Assembly (NCBI RefSeq): GCF_002208135.1
Contig: NZ_CP021646.1
Span: 1,533,501 to 1,597,500, forward strand
Source of the DNA: Pseudoalteromonas piscicida
GTDB taxonomy: Bacteria > Pseudomonadota > Gammaproteobacteria > Enterobacterales > Alteromonadaceae
Length of the DNA stretch: 64,000 nt
Reading direction: 5' to 3'
The position numbers and the translations under genes were made by a program. Under the pieces are notes generated by a model. The model did no database searches, was not told the DNA's origin, and saw only the letters and a program-made list of their open reading frames with translations. Shown piece by piece: positions 23,437 through 40,985 of the stretch (its first letter is position 1; the number at the start of each line of letters is the position of its first letter).

Positions 23437-24665
23437 ATGAAAACCATGAAACTAACCATGATCACTAGCGCATTGCTAGCTCACTCTGTTGCTTTTGCCA
23501 ATGTTACAGCAATTACCAATGCGACTATCCATACCGCGACGGATGCTGGCGTATTGGAAGGTGCGACCCTAGTTATCGAAAACGGTAAAATAAAAGCGAT
23601 TAACCCAGATAATGTATCTGCTGATGTAACGATTGACGCCAGCGGTAAGGTTGTCACTCCAGGTTTTATCGGCTCAATGAACCAACTAGGCTTAGTTGAA
23701 GTTGGTGCTGTTGCGGCGTCTCGTGATGCTGGTGATGACGATGCTGGCGTAGATTTTGACGCAAGTACCGCGTTTAATCCACGCAGTAGCCTAATTGCCT
23801 ATGCAAGAAAAGGCGGAATAACGCAAAACTTTGTCGCACCTTGGGGTGGTAAAAGTGAGTTTGCAGGGCTTGGCTTTGTTGTTGATTTATCTGGTGAGTT
23901 TAACAGCGTGACCGACAAGCAAACGGCGTTAATTATCCATCTAGGTGCCAAAAGCAAAGGGTCTCGTGCGAAAGCGCTGGATAATGTCGTTAAAAAACTT
24001 GAAGCACAGCAAGAAAAGCTCGCTAAGAAAGACAAAAAAGAAGAGGGAAAGCCGAGTTCAGAAGAACAAGTGTTAACTCAAGTGTTAGCGGGGATATGCC
24101 AGTGATTGCAACGCTTTCAAGAGCGTCAGATATTCTGGAAGCAATCAAGCTAAAAGAAAAGTTTGGTTTAGATCTGATCATCAAGGGTGCTGACGATGCG
24201 GTCGTGGTAGCTGAGCAGCTAGCTGAGGCGAAAGTACCCGTCATTTTGAGTGCGGTGTCAAACCTGCCTGCTAGCTTTGACTCAATGCATGCAAGTCTAG
24301 ATAACGCAGGTAAGCTTGAGAAAGCGGGTGTCGATGTCATTTTATCAATTGGTGGAGACAGTAGTCATAATGTTTATCAGCTACGCTTTGATGCAGGTGT
24401 TGCTGTCGCAAATGGCATGAGCCATGAAGGTGCACTTAAGGCAGTTACCGCTAACCCTGCGAAAGCATTGGGTATTGATGGTGGTGTGATTGAAGCAGGT
24501 AAACGTGCAGACATTGTAATGTGGAGTGCAGATCCTTTCGAATTCAGCACCACTATCGATAAAATCTGGATTAACGGTGAGGAAGTGTCTACTGAATCAC
24601 GCCACGATAAACTAAGAGATAGATACACGACAGATTCTGATATGCCAAGAGCGTATACGAAGTAA
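23437..24665 (+). pseudogene. Second exported amidohydrolase-like gene, frameshifted by one base
   Basis: Signal peptide (AHSVAFA) then an amidohydrolase beta sandwich and barrel. Frame 1 runs to VLTQVLAG and then misreads ICQ-stop at 24105; the correct continuation, MPVIATLSRASDILEA, is in another frame to 24665. One extra G in the run at 24090-24093 restores GCG GGG GAT ATG and gives 409 residues (1229+1 bases, divisible by 3). Where the partner has HxH, this one reads GFIGSMNQLG, so it lacks the metal motif even when repaired. The C-terminal GGVIEAGKRADIVMWSADPF is intact. It may be a real mutation or a sequencing error in a G run. Confidence 0.85.
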
Positions 24666-24683
24666 CGTCGTCAAGAGTAGCTT

Positions 24684-24720
24684 AAAAAGCCTAAAATCAT
24701 CTAAGGTTTTAGGCTTTTTT
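24684..24720 (+). terminator. Rho-independent terminator after the amidohydrolase pair
   Basis: Stem AAAAAGCCTAAAA/TTTTAGGCTTTTT, 10-nt loop, ending in T6, 19 bases after the stop. Confidence 0.92.
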
Positions 24721-24809
24721 AAATTATGAATAACTCTGCATGGTGTTGCTATTTCTCAAACAGATTTTTGTACTCGCGAATTCAAGTCCGAAGTGCACTA
24801 CTCGCTAAA

Positions 24810-24986
24810 TTAGGCTGCTTTGCGTAATTCATAGAATATTACCGCTGGTTGCCTAAACTCTAGATATTTTTTCGGCCTTGCATTGAGCGCCTGTTTTATG
24901 TGCGCAATTTGCTTAGACTTTCCTCCCAGTTTGCGCACTTTTCCATTAGCCTGAAAAGCAACTATATAGGTGCCTGTTTCTTTTTG
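24810..24986 (-). pseudogene. Transposase-like C-terminal remnant
   Basis: The minus strand is open for 58 codons without a usable start. It ends IKQALNARPKKYLEFRQPAV-IFYELRKAA before the stop. The LNxRPxKxLxFxxP pattern resembles the tail of IS30-type transposases, but the upstream part (GTYIVAFQANGKVRKLGGKS) does not match a transposase I recognise, so the assignment is tentative. It probably marks an old insertion at the edge of the AT-rich island. The rest of 24721-25197 shows no other gene. Confidence 0.4.
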
Positions 24987-25077
24987 TTATTAGTATATAG
25001 CGAATTTTAGATTGAGATTATTAGGCGTCGCGACAAAGAGTTTAAATATCCATCCTAATCATATTATTGTGTAAACT

Positions 25078-25100
25078 AAAATAAAAATAAAAATAAAAAT
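25078..25100. repeat. Hexanucleotide (AAAAAT)n simple repeat
   Basis: Three full AAAAAT units plus a partial one, about 97 bases upstream of the first CHxC-family start codon. Such tracts can change length by slippage and alter promoter spacing; whether this one does is unknown. Confidence 0.7.
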
Positions 25101-25197
25101 AACAAACCTTTAATTTTCTCTTTTTATTAATGTTGGCGCTGTTTGGTTTTTGAGTTATTTTTAATCTGATTTTAAAATAAATATTTAAGGATAAAAT

Positions 25198-26113
25198 ATG
25201 AAAAAAACATTTGAAATCAATAATTTTTTAATCTACTTTGCTTTTGCATTAGTTTGCTTTTGCATTAGTCTTCAGCTGTAATACTCAGGCCAACTCTGAA
25301 CTAAACACTGATCTTAAACATCTTATGACAGCCTGCCATGGATGTAATGAAAGGTCTAGTCAATCGGCCGCTAAAAGTGCATGGGAGCCGGGGGACAGTG
25401 GCACTGTTTTCGTATTTAATTACCCTGCAAGAACACTTAAAAAGTATTATGTATATTATGAGTGGCTCCAAGTTGACCCTTACCAGCGAGTCCCAATAAA
25501 AAGAGTGAGAGCTGAAGTATTATCGTCTGGAGAAAGAGAGTATGGACAAAATATTGTTCAAGTCTTTAATAATTTTAAAGAGCGCTCATTAACCTATGAA
25601 GTTTACCAAGGTGCCCTCCATACAGATATAGTTGTTAGTTCGAGTCCTTATGGTAATAACGCTTATGACTTTGTTCGGAGTTCACAAATGCGAGATGAGT
25701 TATTTGATACGCAATTTCGGCTTGGATACAATAGAGTGTCAACCTTAGTTAATAGGATTACTTCTGCTCTAAACATAAAAAGGTTTGCTATACTTTCAGA
25801 GAAGTTTGATTTTAATATCATTTTTCCAGATGGCTCATATGTAAAAGTTGAACCTATCCTACATAGACAAACCTATAACATAGTTGAAGTTAAAGATGGA
25901 GACGGCAACACCATCCCTGTCACGCCCCCTAATACACCACAGTATTATCATCATAGGCAATGGGCTCGTTATGAAAATTTTAAAGAGTATATGTCAGAGC
26001 TAGGCCTAAGAATGCGACAAGCTGAATTGTCTCGTTCTTGCCCGAGAATAAAGACGACTTGCTCTATTTCCTCTGACAATAGTCGGATGACCTGTTTAGC
26101 GGTTTGTAGTTAG
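25198..26113 (+). pseudogene. CHxC-family exported protein, first paralogue, frame broken in the signal peptide
   Basis: ATG at 25198 with AAGGA upstream reads MKKTFEINNFLIYFAFALVC and stops at 25281. The mature part is in another frame to 26113. Removing one copy of the 16-bp duplication at 25237-25268 joins them into a 299-residue protein: membrane-seeking leader, C22 (possible lipid site), then the motif C41-H-G-C44, a GTVFVFNYPARTLKKYYVYY strand pair, a NAYDFVRSSQMRDELF helix, an IIFPDGSYVKVEP strand, and four cysteines at the C-terminus (SCPRIKTTC...MTCLAVC). I do not recognise the family. It is followed by two paralogues. As it stands it would make no full-length product unless translation restarts near ATG 25325, without a signal peptide. 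Confidence 0.75.
25237..25268 (+). repeat. 16-bp perfect tandem duplication inside a signal-peptide coding region
   Basis: Two adjacent copies of TTTGCTTTTGCATTAG (25237-25252 and 25253-25268). Sixteen is not a multiple of three, so the second copy shifts the frame of the CHxC-family gene. Loss of one copy would restore it. Confidence 0.95.
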
Positions 26114-26160
26114 TCAGGGACTTTGTGACTCATTAATATTATATATAAAAAGGAATAATT

Positions 26161-26862
26161 ATGAATATTAGCTTTAAGATCTCATTTGTATTTATCTTAC
26201 TTTTCAGTTTTATTTGCCATTCAAGCACAGAGAAACTGAATAGTAATCAATTTAGATTATTAGGTGGTTGCCATGGATGCCAAGATACTGAGGCTAGAAG
26301 TGTTGCAATAGAAATATTAGGTATAGGCAATAATGGCATTGTTTTTATTTATGATTTTGTAAATAGAAACTTGAGCAAGGTCGAAATTTATCATGATAAA
26401 GCGAGTGTTGAGGGTGAGCAAGTGTACATACCACAATACAGAGTGCTTTCATTAACTGAAAAAGAGTCAATGGCGCTTCAACCACTAGAATCATTATTTC
26501 TGGAAAGCTTGAATTATGGTAGCTATTTGAGCGAGTCTCCCTACTTGATAGCAGCTCATCAGGTTGAAGGGGAGTGGAGCAAGGATAATGCAAATGATTT
26601 TATCTTAACATCGGCGATGAGAAGTAGCTTAAATAAGGAAATTATTGTTAATCTAAAAAATCGTATCAAGCCTTTGCTAATTTCAATTAGAGATATTTTG
26701 GATATGGATAGCAATGAACTTGTAGATTTAAAGCTCCTTCATAAATTAGTGTTTACCGATGGAAGTTATGTGCTTGCGGTTGAAAGTGAGCAAAGTGACG
26801 GCGAGGATTTTAAAGTACTTAAAGCTTACGATAGCCAGCATAACGTGTTGGAAACGTACTAA
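26161..26862 (+). CDS. CHxC-family exported protein, second paralogue
   Basis: 233 residues: signal peptide (FVFILLFSFICHSS), then C37-H-G-C40 in LLGGCHGCQD, and GIVFIYDFVNRNLSKVEIYHD, NANDFILTSAMRSSL and LVFTDGSYVLAVES, matching the order of segments in the upstream paralogue. It lacks the C-terminal four-cysteine tail. RBS AAGGAA precedes the ATG. No known domain is recognised. The CxxC-like pair after a signal peptide suggests a disulphide or metal/haem-type site in the periplasm or outside, but a CxxCH haem motif is absent (order is CHxC). AT-rich codon use differs from the neighbouring tus genes, hinting at acquired DNA. Confidence 0.7.
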   Translation: MNISFKISFVFILLFSFICHSSTEKLNSNQFRLLGGCHGCQDTEARSVAIEILGIGNNGIVFIYDFVNRNLSKVEIYHDKASVEGEQVYIPQYRVLSLTEKESMALQPLESLFLESLNYGSYLSESPYLIAAHQVEGEWSKDNANDFILTSAMRSSLNKEIIVNLKNRIKPLLISIRDILDMDSNELVDLKLLHKLVFTDGSYVLAVESEQSDGEDFKVLKAYDSQHNVLETY

Positions 26863-26897
26863 GAAAACTGATTCCAAATGCTTAATTAGGAGCTAGT

Positions 26898-27251
26898 ATG
26901 AAAAAATACCTTTTAGGGCTACTATTAATATTTCTCTCATTAGTGAGCTTTATAGCATACTGTGGTTTTCAAGCTAAATATAATGTCTTAACCAGCTGTC
27001 ATATGTGCTCCGAGCTAAAAAAACAAAGTGAGGCAATCAAAGCACATAAGGGACAATTAGGAGAAAAGGTGTATGTCTATGACTATAGCTCACGAAGCTT
27101 TTCAAAATATCAAATAGCATCTAAGTTGGTATTGACGGACAATGGCGTTGTGGATATTGACTATGCAGTGCCTGAACCATTGTCTATAGATGAACGGTTG
27201 GCTCAAGTAATGATTGATAAAGTTTTTGATGGGCTAATTGCTTCAAACTAA
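26898..27251 (+). CDS. CHxC-family exported protein, third (short) paralogue
   Basis: 117 residues: signal peptide or N-terminal anchor (YLLGLLLIFLSLVSFIAYCG), then C34-H-M-C37 in LTSCHMCSELKKQSEA and KVYVYDYSSRSFSKYQIASK, corresponding to the N-terminal half of the two upstream proteins. It ends before the NxxDF...SxMR and FxDGSYV segments, so it is a natural short version or a 3'-truncated copy. RBS TAGGAG precedes the ATG, 35 bases after the previous stop, and a strong terminator follows. Function unknown. Confidence 0.65.
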   Translation: MKKYLLGLLLIFLSLVSFIAYCGFQAKYNVLTSCHMCSELKKQSEAIKAHKGQLGEKVYVYDYSSRSFSKYQIASKLVLTDNGVVDIDYAVPEPLSIDERLAQVMIDKVFDGLIASN

Positions 27252-27271
27252 TTTTAACTTATTATGATTAA

Positions 27272-27308
27272 ATATGAAGCTTATGGAGTAATAAGCTTCA
27301 TATTTTTT
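27272..27308 (+). terminator. Strong rho-independent terminator closing the CHxC cluster
   Basis: 13-bp perfect stem ATATGAAGCTTAT/ATAAGCTTCATAT, 6-nt loop, followed by T6. It lies just before the end of tusE on the other strand and may also serve that operon weakly. Confidence 0.93.
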
Positions 27309-27319
27309 ATCAAGTATTA

Positions 27320-27649
27320 TCAAATACATTTGGCGGGTTTTGGTAATCCTGCTATTTTTGTTGCTTGTTTGGCTGGACCTTTTGGAAATAACTTATATAA
27401 ATAGATGCTATTACCTTTATCCTCGCCTAGTGCTTTAGCCATTGCCTTTACCAGCATGCGGATCGCTGGGCTGGTGTTGTATTCGAGATAAAAACCTCTC
27501 ACAAACTCAATGACTTCCCAATGTGCATCTGAAAGCTCAATATTTTCTTCTGCGGCAAGAAGTGGTGCTAAATCTTTAGTCCATTGAGTATGATCTAGCA
27601 AATAGCCTTGTTTATCTGTCTCGATAGTTTGGTTGTTAAATTCTAGCAT
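27320..27649 (-). CDS. tusE: Sulfur relay protein TusE (DsrC family)
   Basis: 109 residues from the ATG at 27647-27649; a TTG four codons upstream is less likely. Accepts sulfur from TusBCD and passes it to MnmA for 2-thiolation of tRNA wobble uridine. The DsrC fold signature is present ([22 protein letters not shown]) and the reactive cysteine is second from the end (PAKCI). It starts 5 bases after the tusB stop, making it the last gene of a tusDCBE operon. Confidence 0.95.
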
Positions 27650-27654
27650 GATGA

Positions 27655-27909
27655 TTACCAAGTAATTGAATTTTTCATGTTGATGGTCAGCTCAACCCAA
27701 TCTTTGTCAGAAATAAGCTTTACTCCGGCTTCTGGGACAATGCCTCTGGCACTTGCACAGGTTTGCAGCATCACCACATTTGCATCCCCAGCTGAGATAC
27801 GTGTTTGGCCAAAGCAGCCATCATTACATAACAAAATAGTGTCTTGATGGGATACAAACTGCAGCTGATCGCATGCTTTGATACTAGAAATAATATGTAG
27901 CGTACTCAT
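27655..27909 (-). CDS. tusB: Sulfurtransferase complex subunit TusB
   Basis: 84 residues, DsrH-like: begins STLHIISSI with the central CNDGCFG segment. Structural subunit of the TusBCD heterohexamer that relays persulfide sulfur from TusA to TusE. Overlaps tusC by 4 bases and precedes tusE by 5. Confidence 0.92.
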
Positions 27910-28265
27910 AGTGTCACCACAAAGTCATGTTGTTTGATTAATGCAAGGATTTCCTGTTGATTTTTGACTTCAGTATCAACAGCAAGGGAGTGTGGCGATA
28001 TGTTAAACTCATCCATCGCTGACTGACAGGCATAAACCCGCTCGACATCATAAATTTCCAGAGTTTTTAATTGTTTAAACATGTCTTTTAAACCCAGTAG
28101 TGGAGCATTGAGGGTTTTCTGGAGTGATAGCACAGCAGGACCAGTAAAAAGCCAGCTTACTTGTTGATCAATCGCCGCATAGATTAATGCGACATCGAGC
28201 GCTTCTTTCAGACTATTTTGGTCAAAAGGACTGGTTTGAGAAATAATTAACACGTTTTTACTCAT
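27906..28265 (-). CDS. tusC: Sulfurtransferase complex subunit TusC
   Basis: 119 residues, DsrF-like: NVLIISQTSPFDQNSLKEALD at the start and the VYACQSAMDEFNI segment near residue 75. Part of the TusBCD complex. Overlaps tusD and tusB by 4 bases on either side, indicating tight translational coupling. Confidence 0.93.
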   Translation of the reverse strand: MSKNVLIISQTSPFDQNSLKEALDVALIYAAIDQQVSWLFTGPAVLSLQKTLNAPLLGLKDMFKQLKTLEIYDVERVYACQSAMDEFNISPHSLAVDTEVKNQQEILALIKQHDFVVTL

Positions 28266-38886: not shown

Positions 38887-40985
38887 ATGATAAAAAGATC
38901 GCTTTTTGTGAAAAACAAAATCATGCTCGGTCTTAGCGCGGCAGTAATGGGCATTGCCGCCACGTCAGTACACGCAGCCAGTTTTGATGTTGGTGATTTC
39001 GAGATTACTTTTGACTCGACTTTTTCTTATGGTCAAAGCATTCGTGTTGAAGATCGTAACTTCGATTTCATCGGTAAAAGTAACCACCCGCAATTTGACT
39101 GGACAGGCTATAAAGCAACCACTGGCAACACGATCTATTCTTCGTCACAAATCTGGTCACAGCAAGGGGCCTATTCAAATAATGGTGATGCTGGTAACCT
39201 AAATTTTGACTCTGGAGATACTTTCTCTCAGCTGTTAAAAGGTACGCATGATTTAGCGATTACCAAAGATAACTATGGTTTATTCACGCGTTTCATGTAT
39301 TTCTACGACTTTGCGATGGAAGATGGGGATTTTGCGTATAGCAACCCTGTTTCAGGCAAAAAAGTTGACCCGTGTGAAGACGACGATACCAGAAAACAAG
39401 TCTGTTCGGATTTACGCTTGCTAGATGCATTTGTTTGGGCGGATTTTGACCTCAATGATGGCAAAAACCCGCTCTCCGTGCGTTTAGGTCAGCAAGTCGT
39501 TAACTGGGGGAAAGTACGCTTATTTCCCACGGCATTAACGTCAACCCAGTGGATATTGACCGTTTGAAAGCGCCTGGTTCTGAAGTAAAAGAAGCCTTTA
39601 TCCCTGTAGGTATGCTTTGGGCGTCGATTGGTTTGTCTGAAAACGTTAACCTTGAAGGCTTTTATCAGTATCAATGGCATGAAACCAGATTGCCAGCAAC
39701 AGGTAGTTACTTCTCAACCAATGATTTTGCATCTGAAAACGGTTATATGCAAAACGTTCAGCTTGGTTTTACCTCAAACCCTGATATTGATCTGTATCAC
39801 CTAACAGATGCATTAAACAGCTTATATGCTGATGCTACGGCAGCATTGGTCGCTCAAGGTGTAGTACCAACAGCAGAAGCGGTTGGCAGTGCAGCAGCTT
39901 CCATGTATATGGCTTATCCGACTAAAGTGGCACTTAAAGGAAAAGGGAATAACGGTAAGAGCGAACCTGATGATGGTGGTCAGTACGGTTTACGCTTAGG
40001 TATTTTCTCTCCAGAGCTAAACGACACTGAATTTGGTTTGTATTACATTAATTACCACAGCCGTAGACCTTTGATTTCTGGTAAAGCATCTAATTTTACA
40101 CAGCAAGCGATAATGGCGGATTTAGCTTACATCGCACAAAATCAAATTACTGCAGACAATGTCACTAACCTAAATGCCTTTACTCAAGCGCAAATTACCT
40201 ACCCAGAAGACATCAAACTGTATGGCTTAAGTTTTAATACTGCGATTGGTGAAACCGCATTTGCTGGTGAAGTGGCATATAGACAAGATGAACCACTGCA
40301 GATAGATGACGTTGAACTACTTTACGCAGGTATGGTTGAGCAGTTGGCTGCTGCTGGTCTGCGTGATGATTTGGCTGGTTTATCTCAGCTTAGTCAAGGG
40401 GACGATATCGCTTATGTCGGTCCTGGTGAAGTTGCACAAGGTTATATCTTACGAGACACTATTCAAGCGCAGTTTACTGCAACACATTTGTTTGGCCCTT
40501 CGTTAGGTGCAGATAGCTGGGCAGTGGTTGGAGAAGTAGGTGCTGTTACTATCAAAGATATGCCAGAGTACGATGAGCTTCGTCTGAACGTAGCTGGCAC
40601 TGGTCGAAGTGGCACGATTGAGGGACTTTCTGGCCGAGATTACAATCTTATCCACCAAGCAGTCTCAAACGGTCCAGAAACCAACCCATTCCCTACGGCT
40701 TCAGCATGGGGCTATCGCCTAATTGCTAAGGGTGAGTATAACAACCTATTTAGTGGCGTGAATTTCTCACCACGCGTAGTATTCTCGCACGATGTAAATG
40801 GTATCACCCCTGATCCTATGTTCTTGTTCGTTGAGGATCGCAAGTCGCTTGGTATCAATCTAAACTTTAACTACCTAAATTCGTGGTCATTTGATTTTGG
40901 CTATAACACATTCTGGGGTGGTGGTAAGACGAATACCTTTGCGGACCGTGACTTCATCTCATTCAACATTAAGTATTCAATTTAA
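38887..40985 (+). pseudogene. DUF1302 outer-membrane protein, frameshifted by one base
   Basis: ATG with GGGGGAG upstream; signal peptide (AATSVHA), then SFDVGDFEITFDSTFSYGQSI, an outer-membrane beta-barrel start. The frame reads LGQQVVNWGKVRLF and is lost, ending at 39567. The expected NWGESTLISHGINVNPVDID continues in another frame to 40985, finishing SFNIKYSI with the aromatic/hydrophobic end expected of a barrel. Adding one G to the run at 39506-39510 restores a 699-residue protein. The break is a single-G loss, like the one at 24090, so it may be a sequencing error. Opens the DUF1302-DUF1329-YCF48-RND operon. Confidence 0.85.

What the first reader, a model, noticed from the sequence alone, without database searches (positions are those of the whole stretch)
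25198..27251. Island of three tandem exported proteins of an unrecognised CHxC family
Three neighbouring genes encode exported proteins that share, just after the signal peptide, C-H-x-C (CHGC, CHGC, CHMC), then a V[FY][IV][FY][DN][YF]..R.[LF].K strand, and in the two longer ones NxxDF...SxMR and FxDGSYV segments. I cannot assign them to a known family. The third is a short version, and the first has an extra four-cysteine tail. The island is AT-rich, flanked by a transposase-like remnant and closed by a strong terminator, which suggests an acquired, diversifying gene set. Cx2C after a signal peptide points to redox, metal or crosslinking chemistry outside the cytoplasm.
Basis: partly seen in the sequence, partly recalled or inferred. 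Interest (0 to 1): 0.7.

Follow-up and report, generated by a model that had tools for sequence, protein, structure and literature searches.

The report
Unnamed family of exported cysteine-paired proteins
Three neighbouring genes in a marine bacterium turn out to be local members of a large, so far unnamed family of exported proteins with paired cysteines and a predicted shape that found no match in a search of solved structures, carried as a small insert that some close relatives lack.

Summary
In detail: three tandem, truly related genes with Cx2C near the N-terminus (BLASTP E 1e-16 to 2e-6). In this genome gene 1's start codon and body lie in different frames; a relative has it whole. The trio belongs to a much larger family: profiles reach mostly 260-330-residue exported proteins in 52 of 108 genomes of the genus, 17 of 295 of the order, and 18 of 117 of another gammaproteobacterial family. 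A profile made only from 15 proteins of that other family finds the three window genes and nothing else among 112 window frames. The histidine is not conserved; Cx2C, an F-x-D-G-S strand, GN-x-IP and a paired-Cys tail are. Pfam, NCBIfam, PHROGs and PADLOC give no believable match; a good model (pLDDT 84) has no PDB fold match (best E 0.085). The 2.65-kb island lies between an amidohydrolase gene and tusE in 4 of 10 close relatives; 5 have nothing there. dN/dS is mostly well below 1. Best reading: a stand-alone, disulfide-stapled, two-domain exported accessory protein under birth-and-death turnover, probably a binder outside the cytoplasm (inference). Redox use of Cx2C is the main rival.

The parts
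24669..27321 (.). island present in G000, G018, G072, G040 and absent from G083, G071, G075, G034, G046 at the same junction
   Evidence: blastn of the window against relatives: homology stops at 24665-24668 and resumes at 27322; flanking genes about 60 bases apart in the relatives that lack it
24813..24986 (-). remnant of the C-terminus of an IS30-family transposase
   Evidence: frame; tblastn to three annotated IS30-family transposases, 60-63% identity, E 7e-7 to 4e-6; no Pfam match above cut-off
25198..26113 (+). gene 1 (two-domain form with four-Cys tail); frame broken in the signal-peptide stretch in this genome, intact 299-aa copy in G018
25234..25265 (+). 16-base direct repeat in the signal-peptide stretch of gene 1, not repeated in G018, G072, G040
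26161..26862 (+). gene 2, 233 aa, signal peptide by eye, CHGC, FTDGSYV; no C-terminal Cys pair
26898..27251 (+). gene 3, 117 aa, signal peptide or anchor by eye, CHMC; N-terminal domain only
27270..27305 (+). perfect 15-base inverted repeat with 6-base loop and T-rich end, probable terminator
   Evidence: I6; not listed by the consensus scan
23437..24665 (+). left flank: amidohydrolase gene, in two frames here (23437-24105 and 24096-24665), 409 aa in one frame in L015-L017
27320..27661 (-). right flank: tusE (DsrC-like)
   Evidence: Pfam DsrC E 1.4e-45; found in 107 of 108 genomes of the genus

Best explanation
Shown: the three genes belong to a large, unnamed family of proteins with signal peptides, mostly 260-330 residues long. 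Supported by one good model and by domain-only forms: after the signal peptide comes an N-terminal domain (strand, Cx2C, short helix, three strands, helix), then a C-terminal domain (long helix, antiparallel strands carrying F-x-D-G-S, helix, final hairpin with paired Cys). Gene 1 has both domains, gene 2 has both without the Cys hairpin, gene 3 has the N-terminal domain alone. The genes stand at scattered places, appear in tandem pairs at some of them, and decay into fragments. At this site they come as a 2.65-kb insert that 6 of 10 close relatives lack. Inferred: after export the Cx2C closes as its own disulfide and pins the start of the N-terminal domain, the tail Cys form one or two further disulfides, and the protein works alone in the periplasm or outside the cell by binding a partner there (a competitor's or phage's protein, a surface or a polymer), which would explain why copies come and go. 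Confidence: family and two-domain build about 0.9; disulfide rather than metal about 0.65; binder under conditional selection about 0.35.
For: A profile from 15 proteins of another gammaproteobacterial family finds gene 1 (E 6e-22), gene 2 (2.8e-6) and gene 3 (2.5e-5) as the only hits among 112 window frames, and 35 of 35 other listed members; no reversed control (149 + 2681) reached E 0.01. Spread: 52 of 108 genomes of the genus, 17 of 295 of the order, 15 of these outside the genus, 18 of 117 in the family of G861. Model of the intact gene 1 copy from G018: pLDDT 83.7, pTM 0.67. Cys come in pairs: last 45 residues hold 0, 2 or 4 Cys in 6, 35 and 9 of 50 members and never an odd number; middle Cys are even in 46 of 50. 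Gene 2 and L134 keep Cx2C with no tail Cys, so Cx2C does not need the tail pair. Domain-only forms: gene 3 and two roughly 100-aa proteins of the order for the N-terminal domain; L264, L265 (237-aa frames) and the 246-aa partners in L072 and L075 for the C-terminal domain. No specific recurring partner gene in 23 loci plus the window. Tandem copies at 5 of 41 neighbourhoods, two of these being one site in two genomes. Presence/absence at the site. Purifying selection in most comparisons.
Against: Binding is not shown by anything here; no partner, no domain of known function and no fold match. Export is read from signal peptides by eye. Cx2C lies where a strand runs into a helix in the model, as in thioredoxin-like proteins, so redox use is not excluded. 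Cx2C presence among the 50 listed members is partly by construction, because members were picked with a C..C pattern. The model rests on 46 divergent sequences and its overall packing (pTM 0.67) is only moderately sure. Several close copies inflate the Cys counts. In one search a loose group of signal-transduction proteins (kinases and regulators) recurs in 8 loci; I take it for a big common gene class, untested.
Confidence: 0.5

Rival explanations
1. Exported thiol-disulfide enzyme or redox switch: Cx2C at the start of the first helix exchanges disulfides with a partner outside the cytoplasm.
For: C41-x-x-C44 lies between strand 37-41 and helix 46-55 in the model, the order strand-CxxC-helix-strand; both Cys are invariant in the 46-row alignment.
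Against: No thioredoxin-like chain among the 50 rows shown of 243 PDB fold matches, best E 0.085; no Pfam thioredoxin-like match; residue 2 of the motif varies widely, N in 24, H in 7, D in 6, others in 13 of 50, by first C..C; both tandem copies in L244 have C-x-C and the second copy in L252 has C-x3-C; no majority Pro in the N-terminal domain consensus.
Confidence: 0.22
2. Metal-binding protein: Cx2C together with the C-terminal Cys pair holds a zinc or other metal.
For: Most listed members have Cx2C and a tail pair.
Against: Gene 2, gene 3 and L134 keep Cx2C without the tail pair; tail Cys spacing varies from 2 to 17; exported proteins of this kind usually have oxidised Cys (general knowledge). 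Distances between the Cys in the model could not be read with these tools.
Confidence: 0.13
3. Cargo of mobile elements (prophage or IS-borne) such as a lysogenic-conversion or counter-defence gene.
For: IS30 remnant near the left edge of the island; a member beside a phage-portal-like gene in L071 (the name portal is recalled); two viral contigs of 41-42 kb carry 53%-identical relatives of that member near one end.
Against: No relative of P0002 among plasmids or of the gene 1 copy among phage records, none of L030 among plasmids, none of P0007 in viral contigs; members looked at sit mostly between ordinary chromosomal genes by eye; genes at contig ends of predicted proviruses may be host flank.
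Confidence: 0.2
4. Decaying remnants of an insertion with no present function.
For: Gene 1 is frame-broken in 3 of the 4 genomes that carry the island, at different places; truncated fragments in other genomes (L260-L263; L196).
Against: Genes 2 and 3 are open in all four; dN/dS 0.09-0.30 for them except one pair at 1.11, and 0.08-0.27 even in the 3' part of gene 1.
Confidence: 0.12

Closest known systems
Thioredoxin-like superfamily (CxxC oxidoreductases)
   Same: CxxC after a strand and before a helix in the predicted N-terminal domain; exported in DsbA-like cases (recalled)
   Different: no Pfam match, none among the 50 fold matches shown, variable residues inside the motif, C-x-C and C-x3-C variants, no majority Pro in the N-terminal domain consensus
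Bap-type surface protein (7dm0_A)
   Same: hmmsearch E 9e-4 over profile positions 176-220, the F-x-D-G-S strand region; likeness to Rib-type repeats is recalled
   Different: only 45 positions, no stretch passes on its own (0 stretches), and the rows shown by the fold search hold no such match; likely a shared short motif
IS30-family transposase (edge of the island)
   Same: 24813-24986 minus strand is its C-terminal remnant
   Different: a neighbour, not part of the family; no longer a full gene

Membership tests
the unnamed Cx2C exported family described here | homology to members outside the genus by an independent profile | tested here: met
   profile from 15 proteins of the family of G861 finds genes 1, 2 and 3 at 6e-22, 2.8e-6, 2.5e-5; 0 of 2830 reversed controls at E 0.01
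the unnamed Cx2C exported family described here | C-terminal domain with F-x-D-G-S strand | tested here: met
   met by genes 1 and 2; absent from gene 3, which ends after the N-terminal domain
the unnamed Cx2C exported family described here | C-terminal Cys pair | tested here: inconclusive
   present in gene 1, absent from genes 2 and 3; present in 44 of 50 members
thioredoxin-like superfamily | CxxC at the start of a helix that follows a strand | tested here: met
   secondary structure of the model
thioredoxin-like superfamily | thioredoxin fold | tested here: not met
   no match at E 0.001 in the PDB by Foldseek; none of the 50 rows shown of 243 is thioredoxin-like; a missing match is weak evidence
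thioredoxin-like superfamily | conserved cis-Pro facing the CxxC | tested here: not met
   no majority Pro in the N-terminal domain in the consensus of A5 or A6
thioredoxin-like superfamily | redox activity | not testable with these tools
   needs an assay
four-Cys zinc proteins | two Cys pairs kept together | tested here: not met
   genes 2, 3 and L134 keep Cx2C without the tail pair
any Pfam, NCBIfam, PHROGs or PADLOC family | match above curated cut-off or at a convincing E-value | tested here: not met
   and, for the 21 members of A5: best stray E-value 0.0045, each family in 1 or 2 of 21 members
antibacterial immunity or inhibitor proteins | protection against a named toxin or enzyme | not testable with these tools
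   needs an assay; neighbours were compared with each other but not scanned against families

The most novel reading that the evidence does not exclude
A large superfamily of stand-alone exported proteins with a fold not yet solved, used by gammaproteobacteria as a rapidly exchanged outside-the-cell toolkit, in which at least one member (gene 1) is switched on and off by slippage in short repeats: three of four island-bearing genomes have gene 1 broken at a direct repeat or an A-rich stretch while its downstream coding sequence stays under purifying selection.
Probability: 0.2. Interest if true: 0.7.

Novelty: new variant of a known kind. Interest (0 to 1): 0.5.

Why it matters
About half of the sampled genomes of this genus (52 of 108) and some in other gammaproteobacterial families carry these exported proteins, yet none of the four family libraries searched here gave a believable match and the predicted fold had none in the PDB search. 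Naming the family gives many anonymous genes a common frame (two domains, Cx2C, F-x-D-G-S, paired tail Cys) and makes a function test possible. The presence/absence site between two ordinary genes in close relatives is a natural experiment.

Tried and rejected
Pfam and NCBIfam scans gave only stray hits with unrelated names (among them interleukin 33, JTB, metallo-beta-lactamase models, ribosome-inactivating protein, CGGC, Squash inhibitor), all below cut-off and in single proteins: rejected as chance. PDB sequences: besides the Bap protein a baseplate protein came up at E 0.0051 (7aeb_G); rejected as weak. Of the six genomes found in the class with A5 the hits in G536, G640 and G688 fall in proteins that look like RelA/SpoT, a chemotaxis receptor and a Lys-rich protein by eye and are rejected; the own genome, G861 and G769 are kept. 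In one search the G165 hit was rejected (frame with four stops; a multihaem cytochrome-like gene on the other strand); G012, G289 and G416 were kept. In one search G697 and G607 were not kept; at the G697 place one search printed a thioredoxin-like frame with CNHC, but the hit itself lay in another frame with a stop. Not every weak match was looked at: of the 18 genomes, 16 showed a family frame or 90 and G903 and G918 were not looked at; of the 15 genomes outside the genus, 11 showed one and G228, G165, G123 and G133 were not looked at. One search also counts frames with stops and fragments.

The idea that the trio is a recent in-place triplication was not supported: the tree of the N-terminal domain (50 rows, 89 columns, 24 of 47 inner branches open) groups the trio with the G025 and G027 copies at SH-aLRT 86 only, and the G025 copy falls with genes 1 and 2. 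All-against-all BLASTP of neighbourhoods (23 loci and the window) gave no specific partner: the groups of three or more loci were the family itself, a loose group of kinases and regulators in 8 loci, and groups that hold at least two loci of one site. Of the 20 later loci (L240-L259) 10 were looked at by eye only. Neighbours were not scanned against Pfam.

Papers: three searches (0, 12 and 3 papers) gave nothing on this family in the listings that I saw (10 of the 12, and 3); no paper was opened. A statement that the family is undescribed rests on these searches and the four libraries only.

Second structure (gene 2, alignment A8) and the search of viral structures could not be run: the machine was busy at each try. 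VIA-align was not available.

Full report
What is in the window. Three + strand genes lie at 25198-26113, 26161-26862 and 26898-27251. They are paralogues beyond CHxC: gene 1 with gene 2 E 1e-16, gene 1 with gene 3 E 9e-9, gene 2 with gene 3 E 2e-6. GC is 0.34 and 0.35 in the two kilobases against 0.38-0.47 in the others. In this genome gene 1 is broken: its body frame is open from 25253 to 26110, its start codon at 25198 is in another frame by count, and the signal-peptide stretch holds a 16-base direct repeat that G018, G072 and G040 do not have. G018 has an intact 299-aa copy. In G072 and G040 the gene is broken further on, at an A-rich stretch whose length differs between the genomes. Genes 2 and 3 are open in all four.

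The family. A search with gene 2 finds the trio or parts in 6 of 108 genomes of the genus and one named close relative, Pseudoalteromonas peptidolytica DSM 14001. A profile of the N-terminal domain (A4) reaches 18 of 108, and a 46-row profile of the whole protein (A6) reaches 52 of 108 at E 0.001. The A5 profile finds 17 of 295 genomes of the order, 15 of them outside the genus, 6 of 369 of the class, of which the own genome, G861 and G769 are believable, and 18 of 117 in the family of G861, in 9 of 26 genera. Frames were seen for 11 of those 15 and 16 of those 18. As an independent test, a profile built only from 15 proteins of that family finds the three window genes (6e-22, 2.8e-6, 2.5e-5) as the only hits among 112 window frames and 35 of 35 other listed members, and no reversed sequence among 149 + 2681 reaches E 0.01.

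Build. Members are mostly 260-330 residues with a signal peptide by eye. Only the two Cys of Cx2C are invariant in A5 and A6; nearly invariant in A6 are F204, D206 and D228 of the G018 copy, in the F-x-D-G-S strand and the D-x-x-G-N-x-I-P segment. The last 45 residues hold two Cys in 35, four in 9, none in 6 of 50 and never an odd number; several of the 50 are close copies, and all 50 were chosen with a C..C pattern, so only the tail and middle counts are free of that choice. Tandem copies in L244 have C-x-C and the second copy in L252 has C-x3-C. The model of the G018 gene 1 copy on A6 has pLDDT 83.7 and pTM 0.67: strand 37-41, Cx2C, helix 46-55, strands 63-69, 74-88, 91-101, helix 105-124; then short strands, helices 150-155 and 157-186, strands 198-203, 209-215, 220-227, 243-247, helix 250-262, strand 266-269 and a final hairpin 279-298 that carries tail Cys. 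Gene 3 aligns up to about that second helix and ends there. Two roughly 100-aa proteins of the order have the same short form, and L264, L265 (237-aa frames) and the 246-aa partners in L072 and L075 have the C-terminal domain without Cx2C. The protein therefore looks modular.

Known relatives. None believable in Pfam, NCBIfam, PHROGs or PADLOC. Profile search of PDB sequences gives at best 9e-4 to a Bap surface protein over 45 positions around the D-G-S strand, with no stretch passing on its own, and 0.0051 to a baseplate protein. Foldseek against the PDB gives no match at E 0.001; best 0.085, TM by query 0.15 or less in the 50 rows shown of 243. A missing match does not prove a new fold.

The site. 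Left of the island is an amidohydrolase gene, right of it tusE. Ten genomes, the own one included, have TusE 97% or more identical to the window's. The island (24669-27321) is in four: G000, G018, G072, G040. In five (G083, G071, G075, G034, G046) the amidohydrolase frame ends 59-68 bases from tusE; in G045 a partial second copy of the amidohydrolase gene sits there. Of 40 tusE neighbourhoods fetched for this check (107 genomes have tusE) none but G076, with a C-terminal fragment, held a family member on that side of tusE within the stretch fetched; of four occupied loci added, three are the trio and L078 (G002) has a member of a different subfamily at the same side. The IS30 remnant near the left edge points to mobility, but gain and loss were not told apart. 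dN/dS among the four carriers: gene 2 0.09-0.30 with one pair at 1.11 and very low dS, gene 3 0.11-0.18, the 3' part of gene 1 0.08-0.27, tusE 0.00-0.08, the tus gene at 27909-28265 0.07-0.37.

Setting elsewhere. By eye the members stand between ordinary, differing genes; among 41 neighbourhoods scanned 5 hold a tandem pair (L072 and L075 are one site in two genomes) and L082 gave none, because its member is a 67-aa fragment. One member (L071) lies beside a phage-portal-like gene, and two viral contigs carry 53%-identical relatives of it near one end; no match was found among plasmids for P0002 and L030 or among phages for the G018 gene 1 copy, and none for that copy in viral contigs.

How it most likely works. 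Export is read from the signal peptides and not tested. Paired Cys in an exported protein, an even tail count, and Cx2C kept where the tail pair is lost fit separate disulfides better than one metal site. Scattered single genes, tandem copies, fragments, and presence or absence in close relatives fit a protein that acts alone on something variable outside the cytoplasm. That it binds is inference. Cx2C at the head of a helix keeps a redox role possible. Gene 1's breaks at repeats with selection kept in the downstream part could mean on-off switching, recent decay in each line, or assembly errors; the neighbouring amidohydrolase gene is also frame-broken here and whole in three relatives, which makes assembly error in this genome a real possibility.

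Verdict. It is an unnamed, widespread exported family, here as a small accessory island; the function is open.

Noticed in passing
window 23437-24105 and 24096-24665: the amidohydrolase gene left of the island is split over two frames here but is one 409-aa frame in L015, L016 and L017; real lesion or assembly error
   Followed up: partly
window 38887-39567 and 39549-40985: a second gene that looks split over two overlapping frames (DUF1302-like by recall), again suggesting frame errors in this assembly
   Followed up: no
L173 (G045), beside tusE: a partial second copy of the amidohydrolase gene sits at the site where relatives carry the island or nothing
   Followed up: partly
L259:3401-4555 (G000 contig C2): a fourth, 385-aa, weak family match in the window's own genome (E 8.5e-4), with similar-sized weak matches in G004, G041, G043, G082 and G102; possible further subfamily
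   Followed up: partly
L078 6795-7628: a member of a different subfamily lies on the same side of tusE in G002, and a fragment in G076 (L196), as if this spot takes such genes repeatedly
   Followed up: partly
L067, L096, L099, L105, L106: a longer subgroup (319-347 aa) with two extra Cys in the middle and four in the tail, in the family of G861
   Followed up: no
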